Source: Desulfitibacter sp. BRH_c19
GTDB lineage: Bacteria > Bacillota > DSM-16504 > Desulfitibacterales > Desulfitibacteraceae
DNA length: 64,000 nucleotides
Assembly: GCA_001515945.1 (NCBI GenBank)
Contig: LOER01000034.1
Span: 1 to 64,000 of the forward strand
Reading direction: 5' to 3'
The position numbers and the translations under genes were made by a program. This document shows positions 29,956 through 50,569 of this stretch, piece after piece. Below the pieces are notes generated by a model, which had not been told where the DNA came from, did not search any database, and worked only from the letters and a program-made list of their open reading frames with translations. Position 1 is the stretch's first letter. Every line of letters starts with the position of its first letter.

Positions 29956-30278
29956 GTCTCGAAAATGGCTAAAATGGCTAATTATTGTTTGTTTACCTTG
30001 TTTTTTCCTACGATAACCCCTCAAATCTTCCATTCAGAGCTAGTTTTCCCTATATTTTCTTATTAATACACTTCCATCAAAAATAATTCCACAAATGGCC
30101 GAAAATTATACACTATTATTTTGTAAATATGCAGGAATTAGTATAATTATTTAAAAAAATATATCATAAAATATACTATTTTCGTTAATAATTGCACCTA
30201 TACAATTATCTTTAAAATCAGCTTAACTTATGAGACAATAAACTTGCAATATAAGTTTTCTAAATGGAGGTGACATAT

Positions 30279-31391
30279 ATGAATTTAGATTTCTTTTCTA
30301 GACTTTTTTCCAGCTTATCACCTTTAAAGGTTCGTTCAGAATTGTGTAGTAAGCAAATAACTCCCCGATCTTCCTGTAGTAAATGTTTAGAAATTTGTCC
30401 TACAAAGGGCATCTCTTTTGCTAATGAACAATTAATTGTAGATCAATGCAACTATTGTGGAAATTGCGTTTTTGTATGTCCAAACCACGTATTTAAACTG
30501 GATGAAGACTTTATACTAAATAAAGTAATAAAAAATCAAAAACTAATTATAGCATGCCCTCCAATGTTGAAAAATATTAATATAGCTAATCACGAGGATA
30601 TTCTAAAAGTAAACTGTTTACATCAATTATATCCTGAGCTGATTATTAAAATGATATGTATTATAGAAGAATTAGTTGTATTGATAGACACAGACTTCTG
30701 CAAAAAGTGCCAAGGATATGACATAGCCAATCTACATTCTTCTATAAAAACTTTTGCACCACTTATAAATACTAATTTAAGCAATAAAGTTAGTATAATT
30801 ACTAATCCCAATGACTTAAGTTTATCCAAAAATAAAACTAATAACCCTAAAGAAAATGCAAATAGAAGAGAATTCTTTAAAACTATAGTCTCAAACACAA
30901 AAAAAGCGCCTCAAGAGGTTCTTAGCTATACTTTGGAAAACCTTGATATCCAAAAATCAACTGAGTCCAAAACAGGAAGCTTAGAAAAATCTAAACCTAC
31001 AAAGAAGAAACATATTTTAGACTTAGCAAAAACTGTTCACTTTAAGCCAGACACATTACTACCATATAAACACTTAGCAGTTATTGACTGTAACTTTTGT
31101 TCTGCCTGTACAAAATTATGTCCCACTAAAGCCCTGACAATCATTGAAGAAGAAAATAGCAAAAAACTAATGTTTCAACCCCAATTATGCACCGAATGTA
31201 ATATCTGCATGGATATTTGTTTTACTGGTAAAATTCAATGGCAAGGCAATATTTCTAATGAGGATTTTTTATCTGGTGAGCCAAAGCTTTTAGCAACTGG
31301 AGTGAGTATGGAATGCAAAGAATGCAATGACGAATTTTGGTATGTGCCTGGTGATACTATTAAAACCTGTCCATGGTGTAAAAAAGGTTAA
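30279..31391 (+). CDS. multi-[4Fe-4S] protein with C-terminal zinc-ribbon-like tail
   Basis: About 370 residues from the ATG 8 bases after GGAGG. It has four ferredoxin-type Cys groups: CSKCLEICP and CNYCGNCVFVCP near the N-terminus, CNFCSACTKLCP and CTECNICMDIC near residues 270-320. The end MECKECNDEFW...TCPWCKKG has two CxxC pairs like a rubredoxin or zinc ribbon. The middle has an additional Cys group (CKKCQGYD). This architecture resembles coenzyme-F420-hydrogenase-like or CCG-type soluble electron carriers, but I know no characterised match. A diverged copy of its last 44 codons survives at 33947-34081. Confidence 0.7.
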   Translation: MNLDFFSRLFSSLSPLKVRSELCSKQITPRSSCSKCLEICPTKGISFANEQLIVDQCNYCGNCVFVCPNHVFKLDEDFILNKVIKNQKLIIACPPMLKNINIANHEDILKVNCLHQLYPELIIKMICIIEELVVLIDTDFCKKCQGYDIANLHSSIKTFAPLINTNLSNKVSIITNPNDLSLSKNKTNNPKENANRREFFKTIVSNTKKAPQEVLSYTLENLDIQKSTESKTGSLEKSKPTKKKHILDLAKTVHFKPDTLLPYKHLAVIDCNFCSACTKLCPTKALTIIEEENSKKLMFQPQLCTECNICMDICFTGKIQWQGNISNEDFLSGEPKLLATGVSMECKECNDEFWYVPGDTIKTCPWCKKG

Positions 31392-34083: not shown

Positions 34084-35319
34084 TTAATCTATTTCGTTTT
34101 TTAGTAATATAGCATTGACCAACGTCCCCTTTTCAATAGGATCTGAACCAGCAGGAATATCAATTAAGGCATTACATCCAATCATGGATTTTAGCACACT
34201 TGACTGCTGGTTACCCGTAAGTACAGCTACCAGAGTATCCCTTTCATAGAAAACCTTTGCTCTCAAAAACCTTCTATGTGGGCTACTCTTTTTAAATCCA
34301 TCAAGAATTGGAATCTGTATCCTTTTGAAGTGATAATTTTCAAACCCTCTCATTTTTTTAATTAAGTTCTTAATCAGAAGCTCAAAGCTAATTAAGGCCG
34401 CACCTGGATTTCCGGATAAAGCTACTATTAATTTACCCTCCTTTTTTGCTGCCATGGAAGATGTGCCAGGCTTTATATTTAATCGATTATATATAACACT
34501 TGCACCAAGACTAACTAGGGCTTCTTCAACTAAGTCATAATCTCCAACTGAAACTCCTCCTGTGGTTATCACTAAATCATTTTCCTTGATTGCTCTATTA
34601 ATTACGTCTTTTATTTGCTCAATGTTATCATCCACACACCCATATCCCTTACCACTAGCTCCCAAACTATTTATTAATGCAACTATGGTGTATAGATTAC
34701 TATTATAAATTTGTCCATACTGTAATTCTTCTCCCAATTCTTTGAGCTCCCCGCCTGTACTTATAACGCCAATTCTGGGTGTATTATAGACTAAAACCTC
34801 TGTCATACCCAAAGCTGTAAATGCTCCTAAGTGATAGGGGCTAATAGAATCTCCTGCTTTAATTATTAGATCTCCATTTTTTATGTCTGCGCCTTTTTCT
34901 ATAATATTACTGCTGCTATCGAGTTTTTGCTTTATGCTTATTGTGCTGTCAATATAATCTACATCCTCTTTTTTAACAACAGCATCTATTCCCCTAGGAA
35001 TAGGAGCCCCTGTCAAGACTTTTACTCCATTATTCTGTTCTATTTTATAGTCTTGTCTAGTATCACCAGCCTTTATTTCCGTTAGGATTTTAATTTTGAC
35101 AGGACCTTCCTGTGTAGCCCCAATAGTATCTGAGGCCTTAAGTGCAAATCCATCAAAGGCTGATTTTGAAAATGCAGGCACATTTGTACTTGCATGGACA
35201 TCATTATAGACCACTTGATCCAAAGAAGCTTCAATTGGTGTTCTAATTGAAACCATTTTCTCAAGATTAGTAAGCAATAACCTTTGAGCTTCCTCTAATT
35301 CTTTTACAAGTAATTTCAT
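34084..35319 (-). CDS. moeA: MoeA-family molybdopterin molybdotransferase
   Basis: Inserts molybdenum into molybdopterin-AMP. It has 411 residues with the MoeA order: domain opening with VHASTNVPAFSKSAFDGFAL (in part: SKSAFDGFAL), [36 protein letters not shown] and LSGNPGAAL. The last gene of the sulfur molybdoenzyme operon, so probably dedicated to that enzyme. It is one of three MoeA proteins in the window. The other two lie in the molybdopterin operon near 47-50 kb. Confidence 0.88.
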   Translation of the reverse strand: MKLLVKELEEAQRLLLTNLEKMVSIRTPIEASLDQVVYNDVHASTNVPAFSKSAFDGFALKASDTIGATQEGPVKIKILTEIKAGDTRQDYKIEQNNGVKVLTGAPIPRGIDAVVKKEDVDYIDSTISIKQKLDSSSNIIEKGADIKNGDLIIKAGDSISPYHLGAFTALGMTEVLVYNTPRIGVISTGGELKELGEELQYGQIYNSNLYTIVALINSLGASGKGYGCVDDNIEQIKDVINRAIKENDLVITTGGVSVGDYDLVEEALVSLGASVIYNRLNIKPGTSSMAAKKEGKLIVALSGNPGAALISFELLIKNLIKKMRGFENYHFKRIQIPILDGFKKSSPHRRFLRAKVFYERDTLVAVLTGNQQSSVLKSMIGCNALIDIPAGSDPIEKGTLVNAILLKNEID

Positions 35320-35366
35320 AGCGACTCCTTATATTTTTTAATGTAGTTATAAGCTAAGGGGTAAGC

Positions 35367-35445
35367 AGTTGTTTTCTAGTATAATAGAACAAGCCATGTA
35401 ACAATGTTATTGATTGATACATGGCTTTAATTGTTTCTTTAGAAA
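35367..35445. repeat. dispersed hairpin repeat, copy 2, also a likely terminator
   Basis: AAGCCATGTA (35391-35400) pairs perfectly with TACATGGCTT (35418-35427). On the minus strand GTTCTATT follows, so it may weakly terminate the rhodanese gene. It aligns over about 75 bases with 33751-33825. Confidence 0.65.
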
Positions 35446-36689
35446 CTATATTGGCCCTCTGCATCTACATGAATTCTGCCATCTAAAAAGAAAGTATTTG
35501 CATAACCCAGAGCGGCAATTTTCTCAACTACTCCTGCAGATCTTGCACCTGTAGCACAGTGAATCAACAAGGTAGTTTCCTTATCATCTGGTAATTTTGA
35601 TGCAATTGCTTGAGGATCTTTGTGAATCTCGCTATCTGGAATATGAATAGCTCCCTTAATCATTCCACCTGCAACTTCAGTATCATTTCGTATATCAATA
35701 ACTACTACCTTGCCTCCAGCTTCTAATTTCTTCTGCCATTCTTCAGCTTTTAAACCTCTGTCAACTTTATTACTACCTGATACATCGAAGCTGCCACCGG
35801 ATGATTCGGCACCGAACAATGGATAACCCAAATCTGCCCAGGCAGGGTTGCCTCCTGCTAGGACTTTCACATTTGTATAACCATTATCAACTAAAATCTT
35901 TGCTACAAAATGACTCTTACCACAGAAAAAGCCACCACAATATGTTATAATTTCTGTACTCTTGTCAGCAGGTACTGTATTTAAGTATTTTTCTTCAAAG
36001 ATAGTATCATCCATTTGAATAGCAGTAGGTATATGTCCCTTAAAATACAGATTATAAGGTCTAGCATCAATTATTACTACTGGTTTATTTTCTATGTCAT
36101 TAACGTAATCTTCTGTAATTAGATTTACTACATACTCTGGTGTTATAGTCAGATAATTCCCTGCTTCTGTCCAGAATGGTGTACCTTCTTGATATACATG
36201 GACATTGGTATAACCAAGTTCTACTGCCTTTCTAGCTGAATTAGAACTTAATGGGCAATCTAATCCTCCGCAGTAAAAGATAAGCATTGTGTCCATTTCA
36301 ACTGGGAGTCTGCATGGATACTCATCAAACTGTGCATCTGGAATACTTACCGCCCCATTTATATGACCTTCTATATATTTCACATCTGGCCTTGAATCTA
36401 CAAGCACAAAATTCCATTCGGGTGGTGATTCATCATATGCGACTCTCTCACTTGTGGGAAGTTCATTTTTCATTAGATTAGTAAGATACTCTGTGTCAAT
36501 ATAGTTTAAATTTGGATCTAGAGGAACAGCATTTATTTCTTCCTTCTCCTGTTCTGTATTATCCTCAATTCCTTGAGTTTGTTCCTCAGAAGCCGGAGGT
36601 TCTACATTATCTTCCCCAGTACTGCCACACCCCGTAAACACCCCAGCAGCCAGCATTAGTACAAGCAACAACACAAATAATTTTTTCAT
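35439..36689 (-). CDS. lipoprotein with three rhodanese domains
   Basis: 416 residues. Signal peptide and lipobox end at Cys21 (GVFTGC), then an acidic linker to about 50. Three rhodanese domains follow: domain 1 (about 60-180) has active loop YCGGLDCPLS at 139, domain 2 (about 185-300) has YCGGFFCGKS at 250, and domain 3 (about 305-416) has HCATGARSA at 377. All three keep the catalytic Cys; the first two have an unusual loop with a second Cys. It should handle sulfane sulfur outside the membrane, next to the exported molybdoenzyme. Single-lipoprotein triplication of this domain is unusual. Confidence 0.9.
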   Translation of the reverse strand: MKKLFVLLLVLMLAAGVFTGCGSTGEDNVEPPASEEQTQGIEDNTEQEKEEINAVPLDPNLNYIDTEYLTNLMKNELPTSERVAYDESPPEWNFVLVDSRPDVKYIEGHINGAVSIPDAQFDEYPCRLPVEMDTMLIFYCGGLDCPLSSNSARKAVELGYTNVHVYQEGTPFWTEAGNYLTITPEYVVNLITEDYVNDIENKPVVIIDARPYNLYFKGHIPTAIQMDDTIFEEKYLNTVPADKSTEIITYCGGFFCGKSHFVAKILVDNGYTNVKVLAGGNPAWADLGYPLFGAESSGGSFDVSGSNKVDRGLKAEEWQKKLEAGGKVVVIDIRNDTEVAGGMIKGAIHIPDSEIHKDPQAIASKLPDDKETTLLIHCATGARSAGVVEKIAALGYANTFFLDGRIHVDAEGQYSF

Positions 36690-36705
36690 TTTGTTTTTCT
36701 CCTCC

Positions 36706-37332
36706 CTAATATTGATGCTTTTTATCTTTACCTAACTCACCTATGCAATCTATTAACAATTGAGTAATTTGAATATATAGACTTGCTGCTTCAACCTCCT
36801 TTAACGTTTTTAAAAAATCCTCCAGCCAGTCAAAATGCTCCTGAAGAAAAAGATAAATCTCATCCGACTGACAGTTAACTAACATATGGGATAGAAGCTC
36901 TAGTAAAATAGCAAGATGATCAGGAGTTTTAGAAAATTCCTCTGGAATTTCCAGCCCCATTGTTTCAATAATGTGCAATATATGTTGGGCAGAATCACCC
37001 ATTAGATATCCTTTTTGACTAGCAATATTTATTTGAAAAGATTTATCTGCTGTCCATACTTTATAGACTGACTCAACTGGAATAGCATAGTTCTGTCCCA
37101 TCCCAATAAAGCATCTGGTATATTCCTGCTTCAAATCATGATAATTCAAGGTCATTTCTTCACATGGAATTCCTTCAGTAGAGAACTCAACTTCTTGAAG
37201 CAGGTCTTTCATCTGAGACCATAGCTTACCTGAGGAAAGCTGCCCATGGAATCCCTGGTCGGGATATTTATAAAACTCTGCGAATATTGTAAATAGATCA
37301 GCCAGCATCTCTTTTCGAGTATCAGGAACCAT
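36706..37332 (-). CDS. TorD/DmsD-like chaperone for the molybdoenzyme
   Basis: 208 residues, all helical. The central YKVWTADKSF and PDHLAILLELLSHMLVN resemble the conserved E(Y)xxW and PDHlxxeLefm regions of TorD-type cytoplasmic chaperones. These bind the Tat signal of molybdoenzymes and hold them until cofactor is inserted. Its position right after the membrane subunit and the Tat signal on the catalytic subunit support this role. Confidence 0.8.
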   Translation of the reverse strand: MVPDTRKEMLADLFTIFAEFYKYPDQGFHGQLSSGKLWSQMKDLLQEVEFSTEGIPCEEMTLNYHDLKQEYTRCFIGMGQNYAIPVESVYKVWTADKSFQINIASQKGYLMGDSAQHILHIIETMGLEIPEEFSKTPDHLAILLELLSHMLVNCQSDEIYLFLQEHFDWLEDFLKTLKEVEAASLYIQITQLLIDCIGELGKDKKHQY

Positions 37333-37361
37333 TTTTTCTAACCACCTCCATTTTCACCAAA

Positions 37362-37410
37362 GGGGACACACCTCTATTTTGGATCTAATCTTAATCCGAG
37401 GAATATCCCC
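37362..37410 (-). repeat. REP-like palindrome, copy C
   Basis: GGGGACACACCTC and GAGGAATATCCCC are inverted arms. Two further copies with the same arms in opposite direction lie at 51826-51939. Confidence 0.75.
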
Positions 37411-37430
37411 AGCTTATTCAAGTAGATTCC

Positions 37431-38594
37431 TTATTCATATTTGAAATTAGCTATAATTTTATGTGGAAGCTTTCCATTGCCTCTCATAATGTTTTCTTCT
37501 ACCCAAAGTGCAAGGAAAATAGCTCCACCTATTGTCCCAATTAGTATTGAAATCTCTGGCCATGAAGGGAAATAGAAATTGTAGGGGACTCCCGTCATAC
37601 CTTCTATGACAACAGGAGAAAATATCTGTCCAGCAATGACCATATTGTAATGACCAAAAAATATGCCAATCATGGCTAAAACGGAAGCTTTAAAGACCCT
37701 ATCAGATGCAAACTTTCTAGTAGTAAGCAATAAATACATGGGAATTACCATACCAATTCCAACTTCAAACAACCAGAAACTGATACTTAAAGGCCCTGCT
37801 AAGAGTGCCATTGCTGCCTCATATTTACCAGGCACCTGTCCATACAGGTTTATTATTAATTTCCATATGGTAAGAAAGGCAAATATTCCAATTAATGTTG
37901 CCAAAATTTTTCCAATTAAGGTAAGCAGTTTTTCATTATCATTTGACTCCTGACCTGGCTGTCTGCTGTTAAGCAGATAAGTAACAATTGCAAGAATAGC
38001 TGCACCAGACATGAAAGCTATTAGTAAAAACTGGAATGACATTGTTGATCCCTGCCAGAAAGGTCTGGCATGAATATTTCCAAATACTGCTCCAAGATTA
38101 CTAACTGCTGCTATACCTGCAAAAAATGTCAATCTACTAAAGGTCATAACCCTATTGTCATTACCCAGGTAAATATTATAAACAGTTAATACCCTCAGCC
38201 CTAAATACATCACATATAAGGTTCCCATCCACCAAATACCTGAAGTCAGGTTAGGAGATAATAACAGCCACACCATATTGAGTGGATTACCTAATTCAAG
38301 ACCAATGGCTATGAAACCAAGCACTATTGAGATAATCGCCAGGGTTAATGCTCTTTTAGTAACGACTTTAAAAACTTCAATTCTAAATATATACCAAAGT
38401 GATGCCATTATTGTTAATCCAACACTGGATGCTGCGAATAGCAAGTAAATAGCTATAAGAGATCCCCACGGGACTGAATCAGAGGTTCCTAATACCCTTT
38501 CACCATAGATTAGAATAGCTCCAGCACCGATAAGCCCAAATAATGTCATTATTAATGTAATAATCTTTAGCCTGCTGTTTAATAAACTATCCAT
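37431..38594 (-). CDS. NrfD/PsrC-type membrane subunit of the molybdoenzyme
   Basis: About 387 residues from MDSLLNSRLKI, whose ATG follows GAAAGGGGG. About ten hydrophobic segments, as in the quinone-reacting NrfD/PsrC family. It starts with a membrane helix and has loops such as GNPLNMVWLLLSPNLTSGIWWMG. It should pass electrons from menaquinol or a quinone-like carrier to the FeS subunit. It follows the FeS gene by 13 bases. No haem-binding motif is seen. Confidence 0.86.
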   Translation of the reverse strand: MDSLLNSRLKIITLIMTLFGLIGAGAILIYGERVLGTSDSVPWGSLIAIYLLFAASSVGLTIMASLWYIFRIEVFKVVTKRALTLAIISIVLGFIAIGLELGNPLNMVWLLLSPNLTSGIWWMGTLYVMYLGLRVLTVYNIYLGNDNRVMTFSRLTFFAGIAAVSNLGAVFGNIHARPFWQGSTMSFQFLLIAFMSGAAILAIVTYLLNSRQPGQESNDNEKLLTLIGKILATLIGIFAFLTIWKLIINLYGQVPGKYEAAMALLAGPLSISFWLFEVGIGMVIPMYLLLTTRKFASDRVFKASVLAMIGIFFGHYNMVIAGQIFSPVVIEGMTGVPYNFYFPSWPEISILIGTIGGAIFLALWVEENIMRGNGKLPHKIIANFKYE

Positions 38595-38607
38595 TCTAAT
38601 CCCCCTT

Positions 38608-39150
38608 TCATTTAGAAATATAATAGATACTCGGTTTTGTTCCCTTTTCAGGAAGCAGTTGATGTACATCTTTTGTTAATATAAGTTTGCTTATTTCACT
38701 ATTTGAATCATCCAGGTCTCCGAAAATTCGAACCCCATTCATACAAGTAGTAACGCATGGAGGCTTCTCTCCTTTGACCACAAAGTCTGCACAGAATTTG
38801 CACTTTTCAGGAACATGTTTTTCCTCATCTATTGTTCGTGCATTATATGGACAAGCAATCATGCAATACTTGCATCCTATACATTTTTTATGATCAATAA
38901 GTACTATCCCATCATCTCGCTTATAGGTCGCACCTGTAGGACATACTTTAAGACATGGCGGATTATCACAATGCTGGCATTGAACAGGAATAATGTCCAA
39001 TTTAGCTTTAGGATAAGTCCCTCTTTCGCGAAATTCTAACCGATTAAAAGCAATATTAGGTGGCAGCTGCCACTGCATCTGACAGGCAATACGGCACGCT
39101 GAGCATCCTGTACAACGAGAGGCATCAATTAGCATTCCATACTTGGCCAT
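38608..39150 (-). CDS. four-cluster FeS electron-transfer subunit (PsrB/DmsB type)
   Basis: 180 residues. Four Cys groups suit four [4Fe-4S] clusters: CTGCSACRIACQ, CQHCDNPPCLKVCP, CIGCKYCMIACPYNART and CKFCADFVVKGEKPPCVTTC (exactly at limit). It links the membrane subunit to the catalytic subunit. The protein has no Tat signal and is probably co-exported with the catalytic subunit. It is directly adjacent to the catalytic gene. Confidence 0.92.
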   Translation of the reverse strand: MAKYGMLIDASRCTGCSACRIACQMQWQLPPNIAFNRLEFRERGTYPKAKLDIIPVQCQHCDNPPCLKVCPTGATYKRDDGIVLIDHKKCIGCKYCMIACPYNARTIDEEKHVPEKCKFCADFVVKGEKPPCVTTCMNGVRIFGDLDDSNSEISKLILTKDVHQLLPEKGTKPSIYYISK

Positions 39151-41352
39151 TTATAGTGCCCCCTTTCTTACTTTTACAACTACTTCCTGACCCATAACAC
39201 TTCCAGCTATTGGTTCAACCATGGCAGGAATAAAGTCATTATAGTTTATTCCAACTCCATAGGCCGTCCTGGCTTTTTTGGAAAAGCCTCCATAAGCTGA
39301 AGGTACCCATACACAATCAGGATGCAGCAATTCTGTGACTTTTACTTTAGCCTGTTTACTTGCTTTTGCAGACTCCAAAACTATGTTGTCATCATCCTTT
39401 ATACCCAATTTATCCGCTCTGCCTTTATTCATCCACACCCATGTTCCTTTATAGACTTCTGTAATGGCCATGAGATATGGATTATTGCTGGTAACGTGGT
39501 GGGAGTGATATGGCTGCTTCCCATGAATAAGTCTAAACTCATCATCTCCATCAGGCATAACCTTTGGAGCAACCCATCTTGGAACTCCACTAAAACCATT
39601 TACTTTATAATTACCAACCGAAAACTCCACTTTACCCGAAGGAGTAGTTAAATTAGGGTTTCCATTTCTAAGCGGAAAGCCTTCCTTTACATTTGCAGGA
39701 AATTCTATACACCCAGACTCCTTAAGCTCTTCAATAGTGATCCCCAGGGGTTTAATCATTGCCCAAACCTGCTGTTCAATTGTAAAGTCAAAGTACTGCC
39801 TAGCACCAATTTTAGCTGCAATTCCCTGCATCATATCAAAGAGTTGTTTGGTATCATTAATAGGATCTATGACTTTTTGACGCCAGGCTACCTGAGGATG
39901 ATCATGGGTAATATTTCCGCTAGTCAATACAGGTAGTTCTGTTCTTTCAAGAAAATAGCTTTCTGGCAAAATATAATGAGCTGCATACAGGGAAGTTTCA
40001 TTCCAATCTGTTGGAATTGATACAACCAGTTCTGCATTTTTCATTTTTTTCTGGTATTCAGGATCTGGACCTGTCCGAAGAGGATTATAGTGATAAATAA
40101 AAAGTGCTTTTACTTTACCTTCTTCAACAAGCTGCGGAACTAACTGTGGTATCCCCCTGCTTGGTTCCACAGTTGGGTATTTGCCTTCGACCCCTGCACC
40201 ATCCACTCTAGGACCTTTCTCTGTGGTTGGTGGCTTGGTAATGTTTAATTCGCCTAATTCAAGCTTAGCTGTTGGAAGAAGGCCTCCCTTCATAAACATA
40301 TTACCTAGCAGGGAGTTAATAATTACATTCATTTGTGCTTGCTGAACACTATTCTTATAATGCGCATTTAAACCATGGTATCCCGTTTCTAGAAATGCCT
40401 TGGGTGCATTTGCAGCCATTTCTCTAGCTATTTCTCTTATTTTTGCTGCTGGAACATCAGTAATTTTTTCTGCCCATTCAGGGGTGCAGCTCCTATTTGC
40501 ATTCCAGAATTCATCAAATCCTTCAACATATCTATTTGCAAAATGCCTATTATACAAGTTTTCAGTAATCAAAACATGAGCGAGTGCCAGGAAAAAAGCT
40601 AAATCAGTACCAGGACGAATAGGAATCCATTCATCTGCTATTATGGCCAACTCGCAATAACGTGGATCTACCACAACAATCTTTGCACCCTTTTCCCTTG
40701 CATTTAAAACTTTTTTCATGCCATTGGGAATTATCCCCCCAGCAAAATTACGTCCTACAAAAAGCATATAATTGCTGTTTTCATGATCACCATACAGGCT
40801 GTCACCTACCATATTGGCCCAGACATTACTTTTAGATGTAAAACAAGTTGCATAATGGGTAATATAGTTTGGTGATCCAACATAATCCAAAAGTATATCA
40901 GCATAGTGTTTTCCTTTTACTCCATGCTCTAACCAAACAACAGAGTCCCCCGAGTAATTCTCTACAACCTTATTAAGTTTTTCACCTATTTCCTCAAAGG
41001 CTTGATCCCAGGATATGGGCTCAAATTCCATGTCTCCTACTCTTTTCATGGGTCTGGTTACTCTATCTGGATTATAAACATCTGCAATCATTCCATGTCC
41101 CCGTGCACAAATCTTTCCCCTACTTTTCAAGTGAATTGGATGGCCTTCTGCTTTCCATATCCTGCCGTTTTTTGTATATACAAACATACCACACTGATTT
41201 GTGCATCCATTACACAATGTAGGAATTTTGGTTACAGGAGCACTTTCTGCCATTTGACTAAATTTGCCAAAGCTCATGTAAACCGGAATTGTACTTACAG
41301 CTCCCGCTGCAGCTGCTCCTTTTAAAAAGGTTCTTCGTGTAATACTTCTCAT
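39151..41352 (-). CDS. Tat-exported molybdopterin oxidoreductase, polysulfide/thiosulfate reductase-like
   Basis: 733 residues. The Tat signal is RRTFLKGAAAAG at residues 6-17. The [4Fe-4S] ligands are Cys47, Cys50, Cys54 and Cys82. The Mo ligand is probably Cys170 in HYATCFTSKS, placing it with the PsrA/PhsA branch of the DMSO reductase family. KIVVVDPRYCE, IPIRPGTDLAFFLALAH and the C-terminal EGLYGGFSK-like VPSAYGGFSKKA are cofactor-binding regions. Neighbouring rhodanese lipoproteins point to polysulfide, thiosulfate or tetrathionate as acceptor; this is inference. Confidence 0.88.
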   Translation of the reverse strand: MRSITRRTFLKGAAAAGAVSTIPVYMSFGKFSQMAESAPVTKIPTLCNGCTNQCGMFVYTKNGRIWKAEGHPIHLKSRGKICARGHGMIADVYNPDRVTRPMKRVGDMEFEPISWDQAFEEIGEKLNKVVENYSGDSVVWLEHGVKGKHYADILLDYVGSPNYITHYATCFTSKSNVWANMVGDSLYGDHENSNYMLFVGRNFAGGIIPNGMKKVLNAREKGAKIVVVDPRYCELAIIADEWIPIRPGTDLAFFLALAHVLITENLYNRHFANRYVEGFDEFWNANRSCTPEWAEKITDVPAAKIREIAREMAANAPKAFLETGYHGLNAHYKNSVQQAQMNVIINSLLGNMFMKGGLLPTAKLELGELNITKPPTTEKGPRVDGAGVEGKYPTVEPSRGIPQLVPQLVEEGKVKALFIYHYNPLRTGPDPEYQKKMKNAELVVSIPTDWNETSLYAAHYILPESYFLERTELPVLTSGNITHDHPQVAWRQKVIDPINDTKQLFDMMQGIAAKIGARQYFDFTIEQQVWAMIKPLGITIEELKESGCIEFPANVKEGFPLRNGNPNLTTPSGKVEFSVGNYKVNGFSGVPRWVAPKVMPDGDDEFRLIHGKQPYHSHHVTSNNPYLMAITEVYKGTWVWMNKGRADKLGIKDDDNIVLESAKASKQAKVKVTELLHPDCVWVPSAYGGFSKKARTAYGVGINYNDFIPAMVEPIAGSVMGQEVVVKVRKGAL

Positions 41353-41430
41353 TAAACTACCCCCTACTGTATTGCAGTTTATGCGGTACTATTCAACCTA
41401 AACCCTAAACTAGGGTTTTGTATATTAGCT

Positions 41431-42510
41431 TCAGCCGCCTCCGTCTAAAATCTGTACTCTTGTGACAACTGTCGGCAAATTCTTCCAACTACACCCACCA
41501 ATGGTATTATCGTTTAAATCGTTAGATAAACAACTTCCCCACTGACAATCTATTGGTTCAGTACCTATAATTTCTTTTTCAATAGTCCAACCACCCATAC
41601 CGCCATCCATGGGTACTGCATTATATCCCAATTGGTTGAGCATTCTTGCTACTTGATTGGATCTACTACCATAATAATCAACCAATACAATTTCCTTTTT
41701 CATGGGCAGCTTTTCTAGGTTATTACCATCAACTACCTCTTCAAATGGAATACTGATTGCTTCTGGAATATGCCCCAGCATATAATGCTCTCTTGCACGA
41801 AGATCTACAACCAAAAAGTTATCTTCCCTATTGTCAATACTGTTTCGTAAATTGATAGGGTCCATTGTACCTGTCAATTCTTCTTGAAAGATTTTTTCAT
41901 TTATTTTCACCAACACTTCATTAAATTCCAATTCAGATTCATACATGACCTCTGGAATTTGATTATTTGAAGATGCACTTGTTTCATCACTTGAAATAGG
42001 ATTATCTGTGATTGCACACTCATGGGGGTCTGCTTTATTCCATGCATTCATTCCATTTTCCATAATCATGACTTGATACCCCATCATTTTCCACTGAACA
42101 GCCGCTTGAGCCGACTTTGTACCATCATCACATATTAATATTAATCTTTTATCCATTGGAAGCTTGTCAATTTGATCTTGTTGCCAGGAAGTCTCGTAGG
42201 GAATACTTACTGCTCCTAGAATACTTCCTCTCATAAAATCAATAGTTGATCTTAAATCCACAACATAATAGGATGGATCTGGCTGCAGATTGATTTTTTC
42301 ATAAACTTCCGCAGAGCTTATAACTGGAATCCCACCCGTTTTCAACAATTCATCAGCAACCGCAACAAGTTCATCAAACCTATCAACCTGCTGTATCTCC
42401 GTGCTGTGAGTATTGCTATCAACCTCAGCTAGCAACATATTTCCACAGGCTGCAGTTGTAATAGATGCTGCTATGAGAATAATTATTAAGGCAACACGTT
42501 TTGAAACCAT
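41431..42510 (-). CDS. lipoprotein with two rhodanese domains
   Basis: 359 residues. A signal peptide ends at Cys22 in a lipobox (TTAAC). Domain 1 (about 65-165) has the loop CDDGTKSAQ, an active-type Cys. Domain 2 (about 215-310) has DYYGSRSNQ where Cys is replaced by Tyr, so it is probably non-catalytic. The C-terminal tail adds three cysteines (CQWGSCLSN and GGCSW). First gene of the operon, 78 bases before the catalytic subunit. It may deliver or hold sulfane sulfur. Confidence 0.86.
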   Translation of the reverse strand: MVSKRVALIIILIAASITTAACGNMLLAEVDSNTHSTEIQQVDRFDELVAVADELLKTGGIPVISSAEVYEKINLQPDPSYYVVDLRSTIDFMRGSILGAVSIPYETSWQQDQIDKLPMDKRLILICDDGTKSAQAAVQWKMMGYQVMIMENGMNAWNKADPHECAITDNPISSDETSASSNNQIPEVMYESELEFNEVLVKINEKIFQEELTGTMDPINLRNSIDNREDNFLVVDLRAREHYMLGHIPEAISIPFEEVVDGNNLEKLPMKKEIVLVDYYGSRSNQVARMLNQLGYNAVPMDGGMGGWTIEKEIIGTEPIDCQWGSCLSNDLNDNTIGGCSWKNLPTVVTRVQILDGGG

Positions 42511-43151: not shown

Positions 43152-43925
43152 ATGATTTCAGGGGAAAATCTTATTAAAATACGGCAGGATAATAAAATGT
43201 CTCAAGAGGAATTTGCAGAAAAACTTCAGATTCCAATCAATTATTTAATTGACTTGGAAAACGGAAAAAGGAAAGTACCAAACAGGATAGGAGATCGTAT
43301 TGCAAAAGTCTTTAACATTTCTAATGAACAACTTGATATAGATCATTCTAATGAGACCACCCTCTATATCGGAGATAAAATAAGGGCTTTACGGGAAAGC
43401 AAGGGATTAAGTCTCGCCCAACTTGGAACACTTACTGGTTTGTCTATTACCTATTTAAGTGAACTTGAAAGAGGGGAAACAACCCCATCCCTGACCGCAT
43501 TAAGGCAAATAGCTACGGTCTTTAATGTTCCAATAAGCTTATTTATTGGCAACAAACGTAAAAACACTTTGGTAATAGAGAAGCTTAAAAGGGCAAGGCA
43601 AAACAGGAATATTAGCCAAAAAGAATTGGCTGATAAGGCAGACCTTTCCCCTGGACTAATTGGACAGTTGGAAACCGGAAAAGTACATCCATCTTTGAAA
43701 ACTTTAGAAAAAATTTGCGATGCCTTGGGAGTGTCAGTCTGCTCATTAATCCTAGAACAGGATGAAATTGAGGATATTATAGGTGCTCTAAGCCCTGAAT
43801 TAAGAGATTTACTTTTTCAACCGCAAGTACAGACAATTCTCGGATCCACATGTACAATGACTCCTGATAAACTTAAAATGGTATTAAACTATATAGACAT
43901 GTTAAACAACCCAAAGTTTAAATAG
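43152..43925 (+). CDS. regulator with three tandem XRE/Cro HTH domains
   Basis: 257 residues. Three HTH domains are seen: about 5-60 (KMSQEEFAEKLQIPINYLIDLENGK), 72-130 (SLAQLGTLTGLSITYLSELERG) and 143-198 (ISQKELADKADLSPGLIGQLETGK), each given in part. A C-terminal helical region of about 55 residues follows. Most family members have one such domain. Divergent from the sulfur reductase operon across the repeat-bearing gap, so it is a good candidate for its regulator. AGGAGG lies before the ATG. Confidence 0.88.
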   Translation: MISGENLIKIRQDNKMSQEEFAEKLQIPINYLIDLENGKRKVPNRIGDRIAKVFNISNEQLDIDHSNETTLYIGDKIRALRESKGLSLAQLGTLTGLSITYLSELERGETTPSLTALRQIATVFNVPISLFIGNKRKNTLVIEKLKRARQNRNISQKELADKADLSPGLIGQLETGKVHPSLKTLEKICDALGVSVCSLILEQDEIEDIIGALSPELRDLLFQPQVQTILGSTCTMTPDKLKMVLNYIDMLNNPKFK

Positions 43926-44847: not shown

Positions 44848-45765
44848 CTATCGTGCACATTCTCCGCCTTTTCCTGTTAATATTTCTAAGCCGTGGTCTA
44901 ATACTGGTAGCACAACATCCAGGCATTCAGATACTGCTTTTGGACTGCCAGGCAAGTTTATTATTAGGGTTTGTTTTCTAATACCTGCAGCTGCTCTTGA
45001 CAGCATGGCCTTAGGAGTTATTTTATAGCTCTCTGCTCTCATTGCCTCAGGTATTCCAGGAACTAGCCTGTCACAAAGAGATATAGTTACTTCAGGCGTG
45101 ATATCTCTTGGACTAAAGCCAGTCCCTCCAGTAGTAAAAATTAGGTCTACCTTAAGTTCATCTGTCATTTCCTTAATTGATTTTTCTAATTCTTCTTTCT
45201 CATCAGGAACAACTCTGTAATCAACCACATCCGCAAGGGGTTTTAATTTATCTTTAATCACTTTTCCACTTATATCTTCTCTTTCACCCCTTGAACCCTT
45301 GTCACTTGCTGTAATTATGCCAAGTTTGTATCCTGGCACCACTACTATTTCATCTTCCACATTTACCTGCCCACCTCTTAAGACTTCACCAAAAATTCCT
45401 TCTTTAGGCATTACACAATCCCCTGCTTGATAGTATATTGCACACCTTGTATGACATTCTTTTCCTATTTGGGTAACTCTAAGCAATGCCTCTTTGCCTA
45501 TTTTAAAACGCGTACCAATAGGTAGATTTACAAGATCTATTCCTTGGGTTGTAAAATTCTCAGCAAAATCTCCCGGACCAACATCAAGGCCCATCTTCTG
45601 CATTTTTTCTATGCTTTCCATGGCCAGAAGGCTCACTTGCCTATGCCAATCCCCTGCATGTGCATCACTTTCTAATCCCCTATTCAGAATAAGATTTCCC
45701 CGACCTACGTTCTTTTTACGTTCTCCTTTATTCTTCGAAACACAGACTGCTAGCACCTTTGCCAT
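44848..45765 (-). CDS. MOSC-MogA fusion protein
   Basis: 305 residues in two parts. The N-terminal MOSC-like domain (about 1-145) has GLESDAHAGDWHRQVSLL and GKECHTRCAIYY. The C-terminal domain (about 147-305) is MogA/MoaB: LGIITASDKGSRG, FTTGGTGFSPRD and INLPGSPKAV, the molybdopterin adenylyltransferase motifs. The fusion would adenylylate molybdopterin and perhaps handle cofactor sulfuration or delivery. Last gene of the molybdopterin operon, directly after moaC. Confidence 0.9.
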   Translation of the reverse strand: MAKVLAVCVSKNKGERKKNVGRGNLILNRGLESDAHAGDWHRQVSLLAMESIEKMQKMGLDVGPGDFAENFTTQGIDLVNLPIGTRFKIGKEALLRVTQIGKECHTRCAIYYQAGDCVMPKEGIFGEVLRGGQVNVEDEIVVVPGYKLGIITASDKGSRGEREDISGKVIKDKLKPLADVVDYRVVPDEKEELEKSIKEMTDELKVDLIFTTGGTGFSPRDITPEVTISLCDRLVPGIPEAMRAESYKITPKAMLSRAAAGIRKQTLIINLPGSPKAVSECLDVVLPVLDHGLEILTGKGGECAR

Positions 45766-46251
45766 TTACTTCACCTCTACCTTTCTATATGTTCCGCTTT
45801 TACCTCCAGTTTTCTCAAGCAAACATATATCGCTTATTATCATAGCCTTATCAACTGCCTTACACATATCATATATTGTCAAGGCCGCTGCTGATACAGC
45901 TGTAAGTGCTTCCATCTCAACACCTGTCTGACCCATTACCTTTACTGTAGTTATAATTCTAATAGAATTAGTTTTCTTTTCCATCTCAAATTCTACATTA
46001 CATTTTGTAAGCATAAGAGGATGACACATTGGAATAAGTTCTGAGGTTCTCTTTGCGGCCATAATGCCGGCAACTCTTGCCACCCCTAAAACATCCCCTT
46101 TGCCCATTTTTCCAGCCTCAATCAGTTCCAGAGTTTCCTGTGTCATGGATATCCGACCTTCAGCGATTGCAACCCTAGCAGTTGTTTTCTTTTCTGATAC
46201 ATCTACCATAATAGCATTTCCAGTGCTGTCAAAATGGGTTAATCCCTCCAT
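45766..46251 (-). CDS. moaC: cyclic pyranopterin monophosphate synthase
   Basis: MoaC completes the conversion of GTP product to cyclic pyranopterin monophosphate. About 161 residues from [18 protein letters not shown]; the ATG has GGAGG 5 bases upstream, while a TTG at 46263 has none. Seen are [15 protein letters not shown] (about 70-84) with the catalytic His region, and [15 protein letters not shown]. It follows moaA with one base between. Confidence 0.95.
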
Positions 46252-46252
46252 C

Positions 46253-47227
46253 TTAACCTCCAATCTGGGACATAAGCCTGTTATGGCCTTCTTCCCACAA
46301 CTTCATATTATGACCTTCAGGCTTTGCTTTAATTGCCTGCAAGAATACTTCTTTTACCGCATCTTTGGAACTGCCGCTCCTTAAAACACTTATCATATCT
46401 ACTTCATAATCACTAGCCAAGCAGGGTTTAATTTTACCATCAGCAGTAACTCTTAATCTATTACATTTACTACAAAAATGATTACTTACTGCACCAATAA
46501 AACCAATGGTCCCTTTACCTCCTGGTAATACATATTGTTCTGCAGGTCCGTTAGTTGTCACCTTTGAGGAAGGAAGCAACCCATAGGTTTCCACAAGCCA
46601 GTTCTTTACAGGTTCGAGGGGTAGATAACCATCCTGCTTCTTTTGGCCTTCTCCAATAGGCATTAATTCAATAAATCTAATATGAAGAGATTTATTTTCT
46701 GCCATCAGAACAAATTTGTGTATCTCTTCGTTATTGAAACCATCTACTAAAACACAGTTTATTTTAACTGGATTTAGGCCTGCCTCTAACGAACTCTCAA
46801 TGCCGGCCATAACCTGCTTCAGATCTCCACCCCTTGTAATATACTTGTACTTTTCAGCATCTAGGGTATCAAGAGAAATATTAATCCTATCTAAACCAGC
46901 ATTCTTTAAAGCTGATGCACGTGACTTTAGCCTAGTTCCATTTGTAGTCAAGCTAAGCTCTTCAATCCCTGGAATACCTTTTATCATTGAAATTAGTTCT
47001 ATAAGACCTTTTCTAACTAACGGTTCCCCGCCTGTTAATCTAATTTTTCTGATACCTATTGATACTGCTACCTCAGCAATAGAATGTAGCTCTTCTAAGG
47101 TTAGTATTTCCTCATGCTTTTTTAAACTAACTCCTTCTTCAGGCATGCAGTAAAGGCAACGCAAGTTACACCTATCAGTAATACTTAATCGTAGATAATC
47201 TATATTTCTTGCAAATTGATCTCGCAT
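46253..47227 (-). CDS. moaA: GTP 3',8-cyclase (radical SAM)
   Basis: MoaA starts molybdopterin synthesis from GTP. About 324 residues from MRDQFARN, whose ATG has AGGAGGGG upstream. The N-terminal radical SAM cluster motif is CNLRCLYC (about 17-24). The C-terminal cluster motif is [18 protein letters not shown] (about 250-267). The GTP-binding C-terminal pair of glycines is present (QIGG at the end). It overlaps the end of the MoeA fusion gene by 28 bases. Confidence 0.95.
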
Positions 47228-49176
47228 AGTCTCCCCTCCTTTATTAGAAAATTGGACCAAACAATTTGTCCTGTTTGCTTTGTTCCGTATCCACCAAAGT
47301 TTTCCACTTCTTTTCTAAAATCTTCGCTACAAACAATATGCAATAATTTTTGTATTCTCTCATCAGCTATAAATGCTTTTGGAATACAAATATCATATCT
47401 TTCTTCGGTTATCGGTATGAAGTCTAAGTCTAGAGCTTCTGCAGCTGCCATTATTCCCATTCCCACATTAGCTGTATTTGCTACAATAGCTGCGGCAACT
47501 GCAAGGTGGTTATACTCTTCCTTTTTATAACCAGAAATTTGACTCCCCTTAATTCCTTCCTTTTCAAGTAAATAGTCTAGTAATATTCTGGTTCCTGCAC
47601 CCTTTTGGCGATTTATAAACTTTATTTCAGGATCTATTAAAGTTTCTATACCTTTAATTCCCAATGGATTTCCCTTAGCTACCATCAAACCCTGCTGACG
47701 ATAAACCAGGTTTAATAACAAAAGCTCTTCATTTGGTAAATACTTTTGCAAGTAAGATACATTATATTCTCCAGTTTCTGTGTCTAACAAATGCATTCCA
47801 GCTGCATGTGCTTCTTTACGTTTTAAAGCAGTAATACCACCTAAACTTCCAACATGGCTTGATGCCAGAGAAAATCCTGGATATATTCTGTGAAACAGGT
47901 CATTGATTACATCTAATGTTAAGTCATGACTTCCACACATCAAAATCGATTTTTCTATCTCCCGTAACGTTCTAAACAGTTCCGCTTCAACAGGTAGATC
48001 TACCTCAATTCCTTCAGACAAACGTGGTACCTTGATAATACCATCTGCTCTAACAAGAGACATCATCACACCTGCCCCTCTCTCAAGGGGAGTTGCTACT
48101 AGGTTTTCTCCAACCCTTCCTATTTTCACTCTAACCATTTCCTCCATACCAAGGGTTGAATAGAGTGGTTTAGCTACTTTAACACTCACCTTTTCTCTTT
48201 CTACCATTTCTACACCTAGCTTTTTATAGATTAATGGTTTCACAAACAATTCAAAGGTAAGGGCGGAAGAAACGGGATAACCTGGAATGCCTATTACAGG
48301 CTTGCCAGATACTACTCCTAGTACTACTGGTTTCCCAGGCTTTATTGCAACACCATGGGTATATACCTTTCCCAATTCTTCAATGACCGATGAAGTATAG
48401 TCATCTCTTCCGGCAGACGACCCAGCATTGATAATTATTATATGACTGTTTTCTACAGCCTGTAAAACTGTCTCTTTAATCTTCTCATATTCATCAGGAA
48501 CAATAGGGAAAACTACTGGTTTTCCATGCCACTCTATAGTAAGTCCAGACATAACTCTACTGTTAAATTCTACAATGTCACCTGGCTTAAGTTCAGTTCC
48601 TGGTTTCACCAACTCGTCCCCTGTAGGAATAATTGCTACCCTTGGTTTAGCCTTTACATTGACACTATCTATATTTGCAGCTACCATTGCTCCAATATCA
48701 TATGGTCTAATTTGGTGATTAGATGGCAAAAGCATTTCTTGTTTAACCATATCTTCACCAATTGCTCTAACATGCTGCCATGGAAAAGATGGGGCAATTA
48801 TCTGCAATCTGTTATCATCTGCAAAATTTACATGTTCAATCATGATCACCGAATCAAATCTATCTGGGATAGGGTCTCCTGTATCTACCACTTGGGCATC
48901 CTTTTCCAGGTCTAGAATAATAGGATTTGTTTCGGCTGCGCCAAATGTTTTTGTTGAGAAAACAGCAATCCCATCCATGGCAGATGCTCTATAATGGGGA
49001 GTTGAAACCTTAGCATAGATTGGTTCCGATGTAATCCTACCAAGGCTATCATCTACTGAAATTTCTTCATACTCTGAGTTAAAAAATTCTGCTTCTTCTA
49101 AAACCCCAACTAGATTTTCAAGGGCCTCAACCCTAGATTTATTCTCTAAATAAATCTTTCTACCCAACTGCCTCAC
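47200..49176 (-). CDS. moeA: MoeA fused to a periplasmic-binding-protein-like domain
   Basis: 658 residues. Residues about 1-405 are MoeA (SAMDGIAVF, RVAIIPTGDEL, NAGSSAGRDDYT, GIPGYPVSSAL). About 410-658 are a type-2 binding-protein-like domain (CGSHDLTLDVINDL, GGITALKRKEAHAAGMHLLD, RQKGAGTRILLD), without signal peptide, so cytoplasmic. This fusion is known in anaerobes; the second domain could sense molybdate, tungstate or a cofactor intermediate. The GTG start overlaps the preceding moeA stop as GTGA. Confidence 0.9.
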   Translation of the reverse strand: MRQLGRKIYLENKSRVEALENLVGVLEEAEFFNSEYEEISVDDSLGRITSEPIYAKVSTPHYRASAMDGIAVFSTKTFGAAETNPIILDLEKDAQVVDTGDPIPDRFDSVIMIEHVNFADDNRLQIIAPSFPWQHVRAIGEDMVKQEMLLPSNHQIRPYDIGAMVAANIDSVNVKAKPRVAIIPTGDELVKPGTELKPGDIVEFNSRVMSGLTIEWHGKPVVFPIVPDEYEKIKETVLQAVENSHIIIINAGSSAGRDDYTSSVIEELGKVYTHGVAIKPGKPVVLGVVSGKPVIGIPGYPVSSALTFELFVKPLIYKKLGVEMVEREKVSVKVAKPLYSTLGMEEMVRVKIGRVGENLVATPLERGAGVMMSLVRADGIIKVPRLSEGIEVDLPVEAELFRTLREIEKSILMCGSHDLTLDVINDLFHRIYPGFSLASSHVGSLGGITALKRKEAHAAGMHLLDTETGEYNVSYLQKYLPNEELLLLNLVYRQQGLMVAKGNPLGIKGIETLIDPEIKFINRQKGAGTRILLDYLLEKEGIKGSQISGYKKEEYNHLAVAAAIVANTANVGMGIMAAAEALDLDFIPITEERYDICIPKAFIADERIQKLLHIVCSEDFRKEVENFGGYGTKQTGQIVWSNFLIKEGRLCEINLQEI

Positions 49177-50390
49177 CTACCCTCATATAGATTTACTTCA
49201 ACCTTTTCCCCTTCTGCTACTCCTTCTTTATCTAATGGTATCACCACAAAGCCTTCACTTTCTACCATGGTAGATATAAGTCCAGATTTTCCTAGGATAG
49301 GTACTGCTTTTAGATGCCCATCCTCATCTATCAATTTTACTCTTACATAATCCTGCCTTCCCGGTGAAGATGCCACATTAGAACCCATTACTGCCATACA
49401 TTTAGGTCCTTTAGATTTGTCAGCTATAAGCGGGCCAACAATTACATCAAAAACGACCATAGCTGAAACAGGATGTCCTGGAAGACCTATAATTAATTTA
49501 TCTCCCTTTGTAGCAGCTAAAGTTGGTTTGCCTGGTTTTATTGATATCCCATGAAACAATTGCTTGAAACCTTGCAATTCCTCTAAAACCTTAGCTGTTA
49601 AGTCCTTTGTGCCTACAGAGCTGCCTCCAGAAAGTACAACTATATCATTTTCATTTAGTGCCTTTTCTACTATTTGCTTAAGCATCTCAAACTGATCAGG
49701 TACGATCCCATAAAAATTAGCTTCGGCATTCATATCTTTTACAAGTCCATATATTGTATAGGAATTCACATCTCTAATCTTTCCTGGTTTTAGTTCTTTT
49801 ACTTGGGGTTCTACCACTTCATTACCTGTGCTCAGGATGCCAACCCTCATTCTCTTAAAGACAGAAACCTCTGTTACACCTATTCCTGCAAGAATGCCTA
49901 AATCCTGAGGTCTAATAATACTTAGTTTGCAGCACACTTTTTGATCTGCCTTTACATCTTCTCCTTTAAATATAACATTTTCTCCAGGAGCTACTGGTTT
50001 GTGTACACCAATTGTATTATCATCTAACCATTCTGTTTCCTCTAGCATTACAACAGCGTTACTTCCTTCAGGTAATGCTCCCCCTGTGGCAATTTGAAAT
50101 GCCTCCTCAGAGTTTAGCTGAGCATCAGAAACCTCTCCCATTTTAATATCACCCACCACCTGTAAATAACCCGGCTGCGAAGGTGATGCTCCAAATGTAT
50201 CAGACGAGTTTACTGCAAACCCGTCCATGGTAGACCTGGTGAAGCCAGGAATTGGTTCCTCTGAGCAAATATCCTCTGCAAGAGACCTACCCAAAGCATT
50301 AAATAAGTCCACCCTTTCTACCTCTAAGGCAGGTTTAAAGTTTTCTTTTATAATATTAATTGCTTCGTCCACAGTTAAAACATCAAGCAT
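49173..50390 (-). CDS. moeA: MoeA-family molybdopterin molybdotransferase
   Basis: About 405 residues from MLDVLTVDEAI, whose ATG overlaps the stop of the small Cys gene and has GGGGTG upstream. MoeA motifs are STMDGFAV, RVGILSTGNEV, LSGGSSVGTKDLT and GLPGHPVSAM. Second gene of the operon. With the fused MoeA that follows, one may act on molybdenum and the other on tungsten, or one may modify the product; this is inference. Confidence 0.9.
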   Translation of the reverse strand: MLDVLTVDEAINIIKENFKPALEVERVDLFNALGRSLAEDICSEEPIPGFTRSTMDGFAVNSSDTFGASPSQPGYLQVVGDIKMGEVSDAQLNSEEAFQIATGGALPEGSNAVVMLEETEWLDDNTIGVHKPVAPGENVIFKGEDVKADQKVCCKLSIIRPQDLGILAGIGVTEVSVFKRMRVGILSTGNEVVEPQVKELKPGKIRDVNSYTIYGLVKDMNAEANFYGIVPDQFEMLKQIVEKALNENDIVVLSGGSSVGTKDLTAKVLEELQGFKQLFHGISIKPGKPTLAATKGDKLIIGLPGHPVSAMVVFDVIVGPLIADKSKGPKCMAVMGSNVASSPGRQDYVRVKLIDEDGHLKAVPILGKSGLISTMVESEGFVVIPLDKEGVAEGEKVEVNLYEGR

Positions 50391-50569
50391 TAAAAACACC
50401 CCAATTGACATTTATGGAGCTTTATTTTGAGCTTATCAGCTGTTTCTCCCACATCCCTATAGGGAACTTTTAAATCTTCAGCGAGCTTTCTTGCCTGTGC
50501 ACATGTGATTTTTCCATCCTTTGAGATCTTTTTCATTTCTTCAGCTATCTTGTCCCATTTTCCTTCCAT
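50390..50569 (-). CDS. small Cys-containing protein, first gene of the molybdopterin operon
   Basis: 59 residues from the ATG 7 bases after GGAGGG. It begins MEGKWDKIAEEMKKIS and then has ITCAQARKLAEDLKVPYR, resembling a small helix-turn-helix, and ends KLHKCQLGCF. The three cysteines and the CQLGCF tail look designed for metal or thiol chemistry. I recall similar small proteins next to molybdenum genes in Clostridia but know no function. Its stop overlaps the moeA start (TAATG). Confidence 0.75.
   Translation of the reverse strand: MEGKWDKIAEEMKKISKDGKITCAQARKLAEDLKVPYRDVGETADKLKIKLHKCQLGCF

What the first reader, a model, noticed from the sequence alone, without database searches (positions are those of the whole stretch)
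34084..42510. Molybdoenzyme operon bracketed by lipoproteins with five rhodanese domains
A Tat-exported PsrA/PhsA-like reductase with FeS, NrfD, TorD and a private MoeA is flanked by a two-domain and a three-domain rhodanese lipoprotein. Four domains keep the catalytic Cys, and two have the unusual CGGxxC loop. Extracellular sulfur relay proteins feeding a membrane-bound sulfur reductase would be a distinctive respiratory system.
Basis: partly seen in the sequence, partly recalled or inferred. Interest (0 to 1): 0.65.

Follow-up and report, generated by a model that had tools for sequence, protein, structure and literature searches.

The report
Selenite-reductase operon with selenoprotein rhodanese lipoprotein
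This is a respiratory selenite reductase (srr) operon like the one purified from Bacillus selenitireducens, and one of its two surface rhodanese proteins appears to end in selenocysteine, which ordinary gene calling cuts off and which points to a selenium-handling job for these little-understood partners.

Summary
The anatomy is as described: seven minus-strand genes (two-rhodanese lipoprotein, Tat-exported molybdoenzyme, FeS protein, NrfD, TorD, three-rhodanese lipoprotein, MoeA). Four of five rhodanese domains keep the Cys; two have CGGxxC. It is not an unknown sulfur system. Gene order and protein sizes match srrEABCDF, the respiratory selenite reductase operon of B. selenitireducens MLS10 (reached by its exact genome length); SrrA is 57% identical. 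All 21 genomes found with this SrrA type carry the multi-rhodanese genes; none of 16 PsrA/PhsA-like paralogs has them in its operon. The MoeA is window-specific.

New: srrE very probably does not end at 41431. Its TGA aligns with a C-terminal Cys codon invariant in 14 orthologs, is followed by Ser-TAA, and has an 8-bp SECIS-like hairpin downstream. All five TGA-type orthologs have such a hairpin; none of 14 Cys-type do. The genome has SelB, tRNA-Sec and, in this window, a Sec formate dehydrogenase. In congeners and Fuchsiella, SrrF also has Sec, replacing the second Cys of CGGFxC. A 2026 selenoproteome review lists neither form. Most likely SrrE/SrrF handle selenium at SrrA. Selenite as in vivo substrate, Sec insertion and the relay are inferred.

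The parts
41425..42510 (-). srrE: two-rhodanese lipoprotein, probably a selenoprotein ending Gly-Sec-Ser (361 aa); mechanical ORF call stops at 41431
   Evidence: Pfam; SrrE tail alignment and TGA/Cys exchange; AlphaFold: two rhodanese folds and a disordered tail
41431..41433 (-). TGA read as selenocysteine (Sec360 of SrrE)
   Evidence: Aligns with TGC/TGT in 14 orthologs and with TGA in 4 others; followed by AGC TAA
41400..41418 (-). SECIS-like hairpin AAACCCUA-GUU-UAGGGUUU, loop begins 21st nt after the UGA
   Evidence: MFE -11.9 kcal/mol, z -2.2; such a hairpin in 5 of 5 TGA-type and 0 of 14 Cys-type orthologs
39151..41352 (-). srrA: Tat-exported Mo-bisPGD catalytic subunit with one N-terminal 4Fe-4S site
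   Evidence: Pfam incl. TAT signal; 57% identity to MLS10 SrrA; tree clade 100/100
38608..39150 (-). srrB: 4Fe-4S electron-transfer subunit, 16 cluster Cys
   Evidence: Pfam; conserved in the srr loci
37431..38669 (-). srrC: NrfD/PsrC-type membrane subunit (true start probably near 38594)
   Evidence: Pfam NrfD
36706..37332 (-). srrD: TorD-type chaperone
   Evidence: Pfam PF02613
35439..36689 (-). srrF: three-rhodanese lipoprotein, loops CGGLDC, CGGFFC, HCATGAR; the last Cys of loop 2 (Cys256) is Sec in G001, G002 and Fuchsiella
   Evidence: AlphaFold mean pLDDT 86
34084..35319 (-). moeA, molybdenum insertion; in the operon only in this genome
   Evidence: Pfam; absent from other srr loci
43152..43925 (+). 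Divergent regulator with three HTH_3 domains, candidate srr regulator
   Evidence: Pfam; a homolog lies divergently upstream of srrE in G085 and G119 too

Best explanation
An srr-type respiratory selenite reductase operon. Electrons from the quinone pool pass through SrrC and SrrB to the Tat-exported molybdoenzyme SrrA, which reduces selenite outside the cytoplasmic membrane; SrrD is its chaperone. The lipoproteins SrrE and SrrF handle the selenium: nascent Se(0) or selenide is captured as thiol-bound perselenide on the CGGxxC rhodanese loops and released by the second Cys (Sec in relatives) or by the mobile C-terminal Cys/Sec tail of SrrE. In this organism SrrE is a selenoprotein. Shown by comparison: operon identity, co-conservation, the alignment of TGA with an invariant Cys, the hairpins, the Sec machinery. 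Inferred: that Sec is inserted, that selenite is the in vivo substrate, and the direction and chemistry of the relay.
For: Same gene order and protein masses as MLS10 srrEABCDF; SrrA 57% identical and in one 100/100 clade with it, apart from PsrA-like paralogs; rhodanese genes in 21/21 SrrA loci; both Cys of the SrrF loops invariant in 22 SrrF proteins apart from Sec exchange; SrrE C-terminal Cys/Sec invariant in 19; hairpin 5/5 against 0/14; SelB and tRNA-Sec in the genome; Sec formate dehydrogenase in the window. Rhodanese-selenite precedents: Ogasawara 2001 title and ExtH.
Against: No activity or expression data; the window enzyme is 57%, not near-identical, to the characterised one; PsrA-family members change substrate easily; single hairpins have modest z-scores (-0.4 to -3.2); Sec in SrrE/SrrF does not by itself prove that selenium is the substrate; relay chemistry rests on analogy.
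Confidence: 0.6

Rival explanations
1. A polysulfide, sulfur or thiosulfate reductase in vivo: the rhodanese lipoproteins carry sulfane sulfur to SrrA, as proposed for Sud and Psr of Wolinella, and selenite reduction is a side activity.
For: SrrA lies in the PsrA/PhsA/SrrA group (best model PhsA, best structure the Thermus polysulfide/thiosulfate reductase 2vpw); rhodanese loops normally carry sulfur.
Against: Closest characterised homolog and whole operon are the selenite reductase; PhsA cut-off not met; PsrA-like paralogs in the same genomes lack the rhodanese genes.
Confidence: 0.2
2. SrrE/SrrF act before SrrA: their paired thiols/selenols react with selenite to form selenotrisulfide-type adducts that SrrA then reduces (substrate delivery rather than product removal).
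For: Selenite reacts directly with thiols (established chemistry); two paired-Cys loops per SrrF.
Against: The MLS10 catalytic subunit was reported active as a single 80 kDa protein (from memory, paper not held), so prior binding is not needed.
Confidence: 0.25
3. SrrE/SrrF are thiol repair or protection proteins that reduce seleno-adducts and oxidants at the cell surface, not carriers.
For: CxxxxC/U loops and a C-terminal Cys/Sec tail resemble thiol oxidoreductase redox centres; the Cys is lost in SrrE domain 2.
Against: SrrF domain 3 keeps a sulfurtransferase-type HCA[ST]GAR loop in all orthologs; strict link to one reductase.
Confidence: 0.15
4. The srrE TGA is a true stop and the hairpin is an mRNA stability or attenuation element between srrE and srrA.
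For: TGA is also an ordinary stop here (srrB ends in TGA).
Against: In five genomes of at least three lineages TGA aligns exactly with the invariant C-terminal Cys codon, followed by the homologous Ser/Gly and a stop; hairpin only in TGA-type genomes; no U-tract follows; Sec machinery present.
Confidence: 0.08

Closest known systems
srrEABCDF respiratory selenite reductase, Bacillus selenitireducens MLS10 (Wells et al. 2019; recited in PMC12481199)
   Same: Gene order, protein sizes, TAT leader, FeS/NrfD/TorD partners, two- and three-rhodanese proteins, even the lost Cys of SrrE domain 2
   Different: SrrE ends in Sec instead of Cys and has a SECIS-like hairpin; a moeA follows; different phylum-level lineage; 57% SrrA identity
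Polysulfide/thiosulfate reductases (PsrABC, PhsABC)
   Same: Molybdoenzyme, FeS and NrfD subunit plan; about 38-46% identity to paralogs in Bacilli
   Different: Separate clade; no multi-rhodanese genes in their operons; PhsA cut-off not met
Sud protein with Psr in Wolinella succinogenes (own knowledge)
   Same: Exported rhodanese working with a PsrA-type reductase
   Different: Sud is a single-rhodanese protein, not a multi-domain lipoprotein pair, and no Sec form is known to me; not tested by sequence
ExtH/ExtKL selenite reduction cluster of Geobacter (PMC5877670, PMC8981825)
   Same: Rhodanese lipoprotein tied to selenite handling, next to a Sec-containing partner (ExtKL)
   Different: Cytochrome-based, no molybdoenzyme; SrrF scores 24 bits against the ExtH cut-off of 200, over the signal peptide only
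Selenoprotein rhodaneses, e.g. TsoB (UxxxxU)
   Same: Rhodanese loop with Sec at the second of two redox positions
   Different: SrrF has CxxxxU in a three-domain lipoprotein (105 bits against TsoB cut-off 805); SrrE has its Sec in a C-terminal tail; neither among the five forms listed in PMC13188914

Membership tests
Respiratory selenite reductase (Srr) | Operon order E-A-B-C-D-F with the published subunit sizes | tested here: met
   Window E 39.9, A 81.7, B 20.3, C 45.8, D 24.2, F 45.7 kDa; MLS10 38.4, 82.2, 19.9, 43.1, 24.2, 45.6; published 38, 80, 17, 43, 24, 45
Respiratory selenite reductase (Srr) | SrrA in one clade with the MLS10 enzyme | tested here: met
   57% identity; clade support 100/100
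Respiratory selenite reductase (Srr) | TAT leader, one 4Fe-4S site in SrrA, four in SrrB | tested here: met
   Pfam TAT_signal and Molybdop_Fe4S4; 16 cluster Cys in SrrB (sequence)
Respiratory selenite reductase (Srr) | Reduces selenite | not testable with these tools
   Needs the enzyme
PhsA thiosulfate reductase | NCBIfam equivalog cut-off (694 bits) | tested here: not met
   416.6 bits
Selenoprotein (SrrE) | In-frame TGA aligned with Cys of homologs | tested here: met
   14 Cys-type and 5 TGA-type orthologs
Selenoprotein (SrrE) | SECIS-like hairpin at proper distance downstream of the UGA | tested here: met
   Stem 12-14 nt after the TGA, 6-8 bp, in 5 of 5 TGA-type and 0 of 14 Cys-type; no dedicated bacterial SECIS model was run
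Selenoprotein (SrrE) | Host Sec machinery | tested here: met
   SelB G000:C47:100028-101908 and tRNA-Sec C47:99831-99923
Selenoprotein (SrrE) | Sec present in the protein | not testable with these tools
   Needs mass spectrometry or 75Se
ExtH | NCBIfam NF040901 cut-off (200 bits) | tested here: not met
   24.1 bits
TsoB selenoprotein | NCBIfam NF045694 cut-off (805 bits) | tested here: not met
   104.7 bits for SrrF

The most novel reading that the evidence does not exclude
The accessory lipoproteins of the selenite respiration enzyme form a chalcogen relay that itself uses selenocysteine at two separate sites (second position of a CxxxxU rhodanese loop in SrrF, and a C-terminal Gly-Sec-Ser/Gly arm in SrrE), so that bacteria respiring selenium build their selenium-handling proteins with selenium.
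Probability: 0.35. Interest if true: 0.78.

Novelty: new variant of a known kind. Interest (0 to 1): 0.6.

Why it matters
What SrrE and SrrF do in selenite respiration is unknown. Sec/Cys exchange marks the residues likely to do the chemistry (second CGGxxC position of SrrF, C-terminal residue of SrrE) and makes their role directly testable by mutation. The result also extends the srr operon beyond Bacilli, offers a genome marker that separates SrrA from PsrA/PhsA (flanking multi-rhodanese genes), and adds two selenoprotein forms that automatic annotation truncates or splits.

Tried and rejected
Sulfur-reductase novelty: set aside as first choice after the match to MLS10. ExtH and TsoB membership: cut-offs not met. 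MoeA as an integral part: absent from other srr loci. Terminator explanation of the srrE hairpin: no U-tract on the transcribed strand. The genome-contig scan used only two peptide patterns and missed MLS10; it was reached through class- and order-wide genome searches. PMC5317093, opened for the Sud-Psr precedent, treats a different enzyme.

Full report
Observation. The seven genes are present as described on the minus strand, with the expected Pfam domains. Four of five rhodanese domains keep the loop Cys; E2 has lost it; F1 and F2 have CGGLDC and CGGFFC. Both rhodanese proteins carry lipobox-like signals.

Identity of the operon. The order two-rhodanese, A, B, C, D, three-rhodanese is that of srrEABCDF, the respiratory selenite reductase of Bacillus selenitireducens MLS10: a review gives srrA 80 kDa with TAT leader, srrB 17, srrC 43, srrD 24, srrE 38 and srrF 45 kDa, the last two rhodanese proteins (PMC12481199); another lists SrrA as reducing selenite to Se(0) (PMC10100899). 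The original paper is not held. I reached the MLS10 genome itself: G967 has one contig of 3,592,487 bases, the published length of NC_014219 (PMC3171730). Its operon encodes 38.4, 82.2, 19.9, 43.1, 24.2 and 45.6 kDa for E, A, B, C, D and F. The window SrrA is 57% identical to it and falls with it in a clade of 100/100 support, apart from 16 PsrA/PhsA-like paralogs of 38-46% identity. The MLS10 SrrE also lacks the Cys of its second domain.

Co-conservation. In 21 genomes with an SrrA of at least 57% identity (6 of the window's phylum, 15 Bacilli) the cluster includes multi-rhodanese genes, nearly always in the order E-A-B-C-D-F; in two Bacilli (G326, G347) the E-like gene follows F, and in the two MAGs G085 and G119 SrrE has one domain. 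None of the 16 paralogs has multi-rhodanese genes in its own operon; one (G372) lies beside that genome's srr operon and one (G367) has single-rhodanese genes on the opposite strand nearby. Fisher p is 1.4e-10 for 20 against 16 tree rows, not corrected for kinship. The moeA is not conserved.

Selenocysteine in SrrF. In both congeners (G001, G002) and in Fuchsiella alkaliacetigena (G298, named as L018) the srrF frame holds one TGA, exactly at the second Cys of the domain-2 loop: CGGFFU, CGGFFU, CGGFQU. More distant three-rhodanese proteins of SAR324, Thermodesulfovibrionales and Desulfobacterota have TGA at the equivalent position of loop 1, and one in both loops. Downstream hairpins are stronger than at Cys-type loops as a group (Mann-Whitney p 1e-5), though some Cys sites also fold. 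The window srrF has Cys.

Selenocysteine in SrrE, in the window itself. The mechanical ORF ends at TGA 41433-41431, followed by AGC and TAA. In 14 orthologs this place is a Cys codon in a tail [GS]-C-[GSR]-stop; in five genomes (window, G001, G002, Fuchsiella, and G786 of the Bacilli) it is TGA followed by Ser or Gly and a stop. Read as C/U, the column is one of 12 invariant columns among 19 SrrE proteins, kept even in one-domain forms. All five TGA-type genomes have a 6-8 bp hairpin starting 12-14 nt after the TGA; the Cys-type genomes have almost no structure there (MFE -5.8 to -11.9 against 0 to -3.2 kcal/mol; Fisher 8.6e-5). Single z-scores are modest (-0.4 to -3.2), so the weight lies in the perfect sorting and in the change of stem sequence with the stem kept: AAACCCUA/UAGGGUUU in the window, AGUCCC/GGGACU in G002. 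No U-tract follows, so it is not a typical terminator. The genome has SelB and tRNA-Sec side by side, and the same window encodes a Sec formate dehydrogenase. The AlphaFold model of SrrE has two confident rhodanese folds and a disordered tail bearing Sec360.

Novelty. A 2026 review of prokaryotic selenoproteins lists five rhodanese forms with motifs UxxS, UxxG, CxU, UxxG and UxxxxU (PMC13188914); neither the CxxxxU loop of SrrF nor the C-terminal form of SrrE is among them. A full-text search for rhodanese, selenoprotein, selenocysteine and selenite reductase gave three papers; the passages read in them describe neither. The operon kind is known; its Sec variants appear new within the literature I could search.

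Mechanism. Shown: parts, order, co-conservation, exchange sites. Established for the families: NrfD, FeS and molybdoenzyme complexes couple quinol to an external acceptor; rhodanese loops carry chalcogen on Cys. Precedents: selenite and glutathione turn rhodanese into a perselenide (Ogasawara 2001, seen here only as a title cited in PMC5877670), and the rhodanese lipoprotein ExtH is tied to selenite handling in Geobacter. Inferred: SrrF loops take up Se from SrrA, and the second Cys/Sec and the SrrE tail release it. The direction (product removal or substrate delivery) is undecided; I prefer product removal because the 80 kDa SrrA was reported active by itself (from memory).

Limits. Activity, expression and Sec insertion cannot be tested here. 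Genomes other than MLS10, Fuchsiella and a few MAGs are unnamed. Counts of genomes are not independent events: TGA-type SrrE spans at least three lineages, TGA-type SrrF two within the SrrA clade.

Noticed in passing
window 51944-54634 (-): Two called ORFs are one NAD-type formate dehydrogenase alpha subunit with an in-frame TGA (Sec353, motif ARLUHS), next to an NuoF-like gene.
   Followed up: partly
L169 (G299, SAR324), L019, L027, L029, L031, L033: Distant three-rhodanese proteins of Desulfobacterota-type bacteria with Sec in the YCxGxxU loop, L169 with two; in L019, L029 and L169 beside a molybdoenzyme only about 30% identical to SrrA, a separate and apparently uncharacterised association.
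   Followed up: partly
L022, L023, L024, L025: Single-rhodanese genes next to such three-rhodanese genes carry a YCRDFRU or YCRGFRU loop (Sec).
   Followed up: no
L098:11050-11063 (Fuchsiella, G298): The srr operon lacks srrC (NrfD) between srrB and srrD, so electrons must reach SrrAB another way.
   Followed up: no
window 30264-31391 (+); L140:7429-8520; L168:3283-4410: A 375-aa ferredoxin-type protein near the operon has weak homologs (57-59 bits) directly upstream of srrE in two Bacilli; a possible srr-associated gene.
   Followed up: no
window 44848-50411 (-): Molybdenum cofactor genes (mog/MOSC fusion, moaC, moaA, moeA-PBP, moeA) lie upstream of srrE; in G002 the same genes directly precede srrE and groEL follows srrF, so the locus is syntenic in the genus.
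   Followed up: partly
L185:8201-10503 (G1017): srrA is split into two overlapping frames, a frameshift or assembly error.
   Followed up: no
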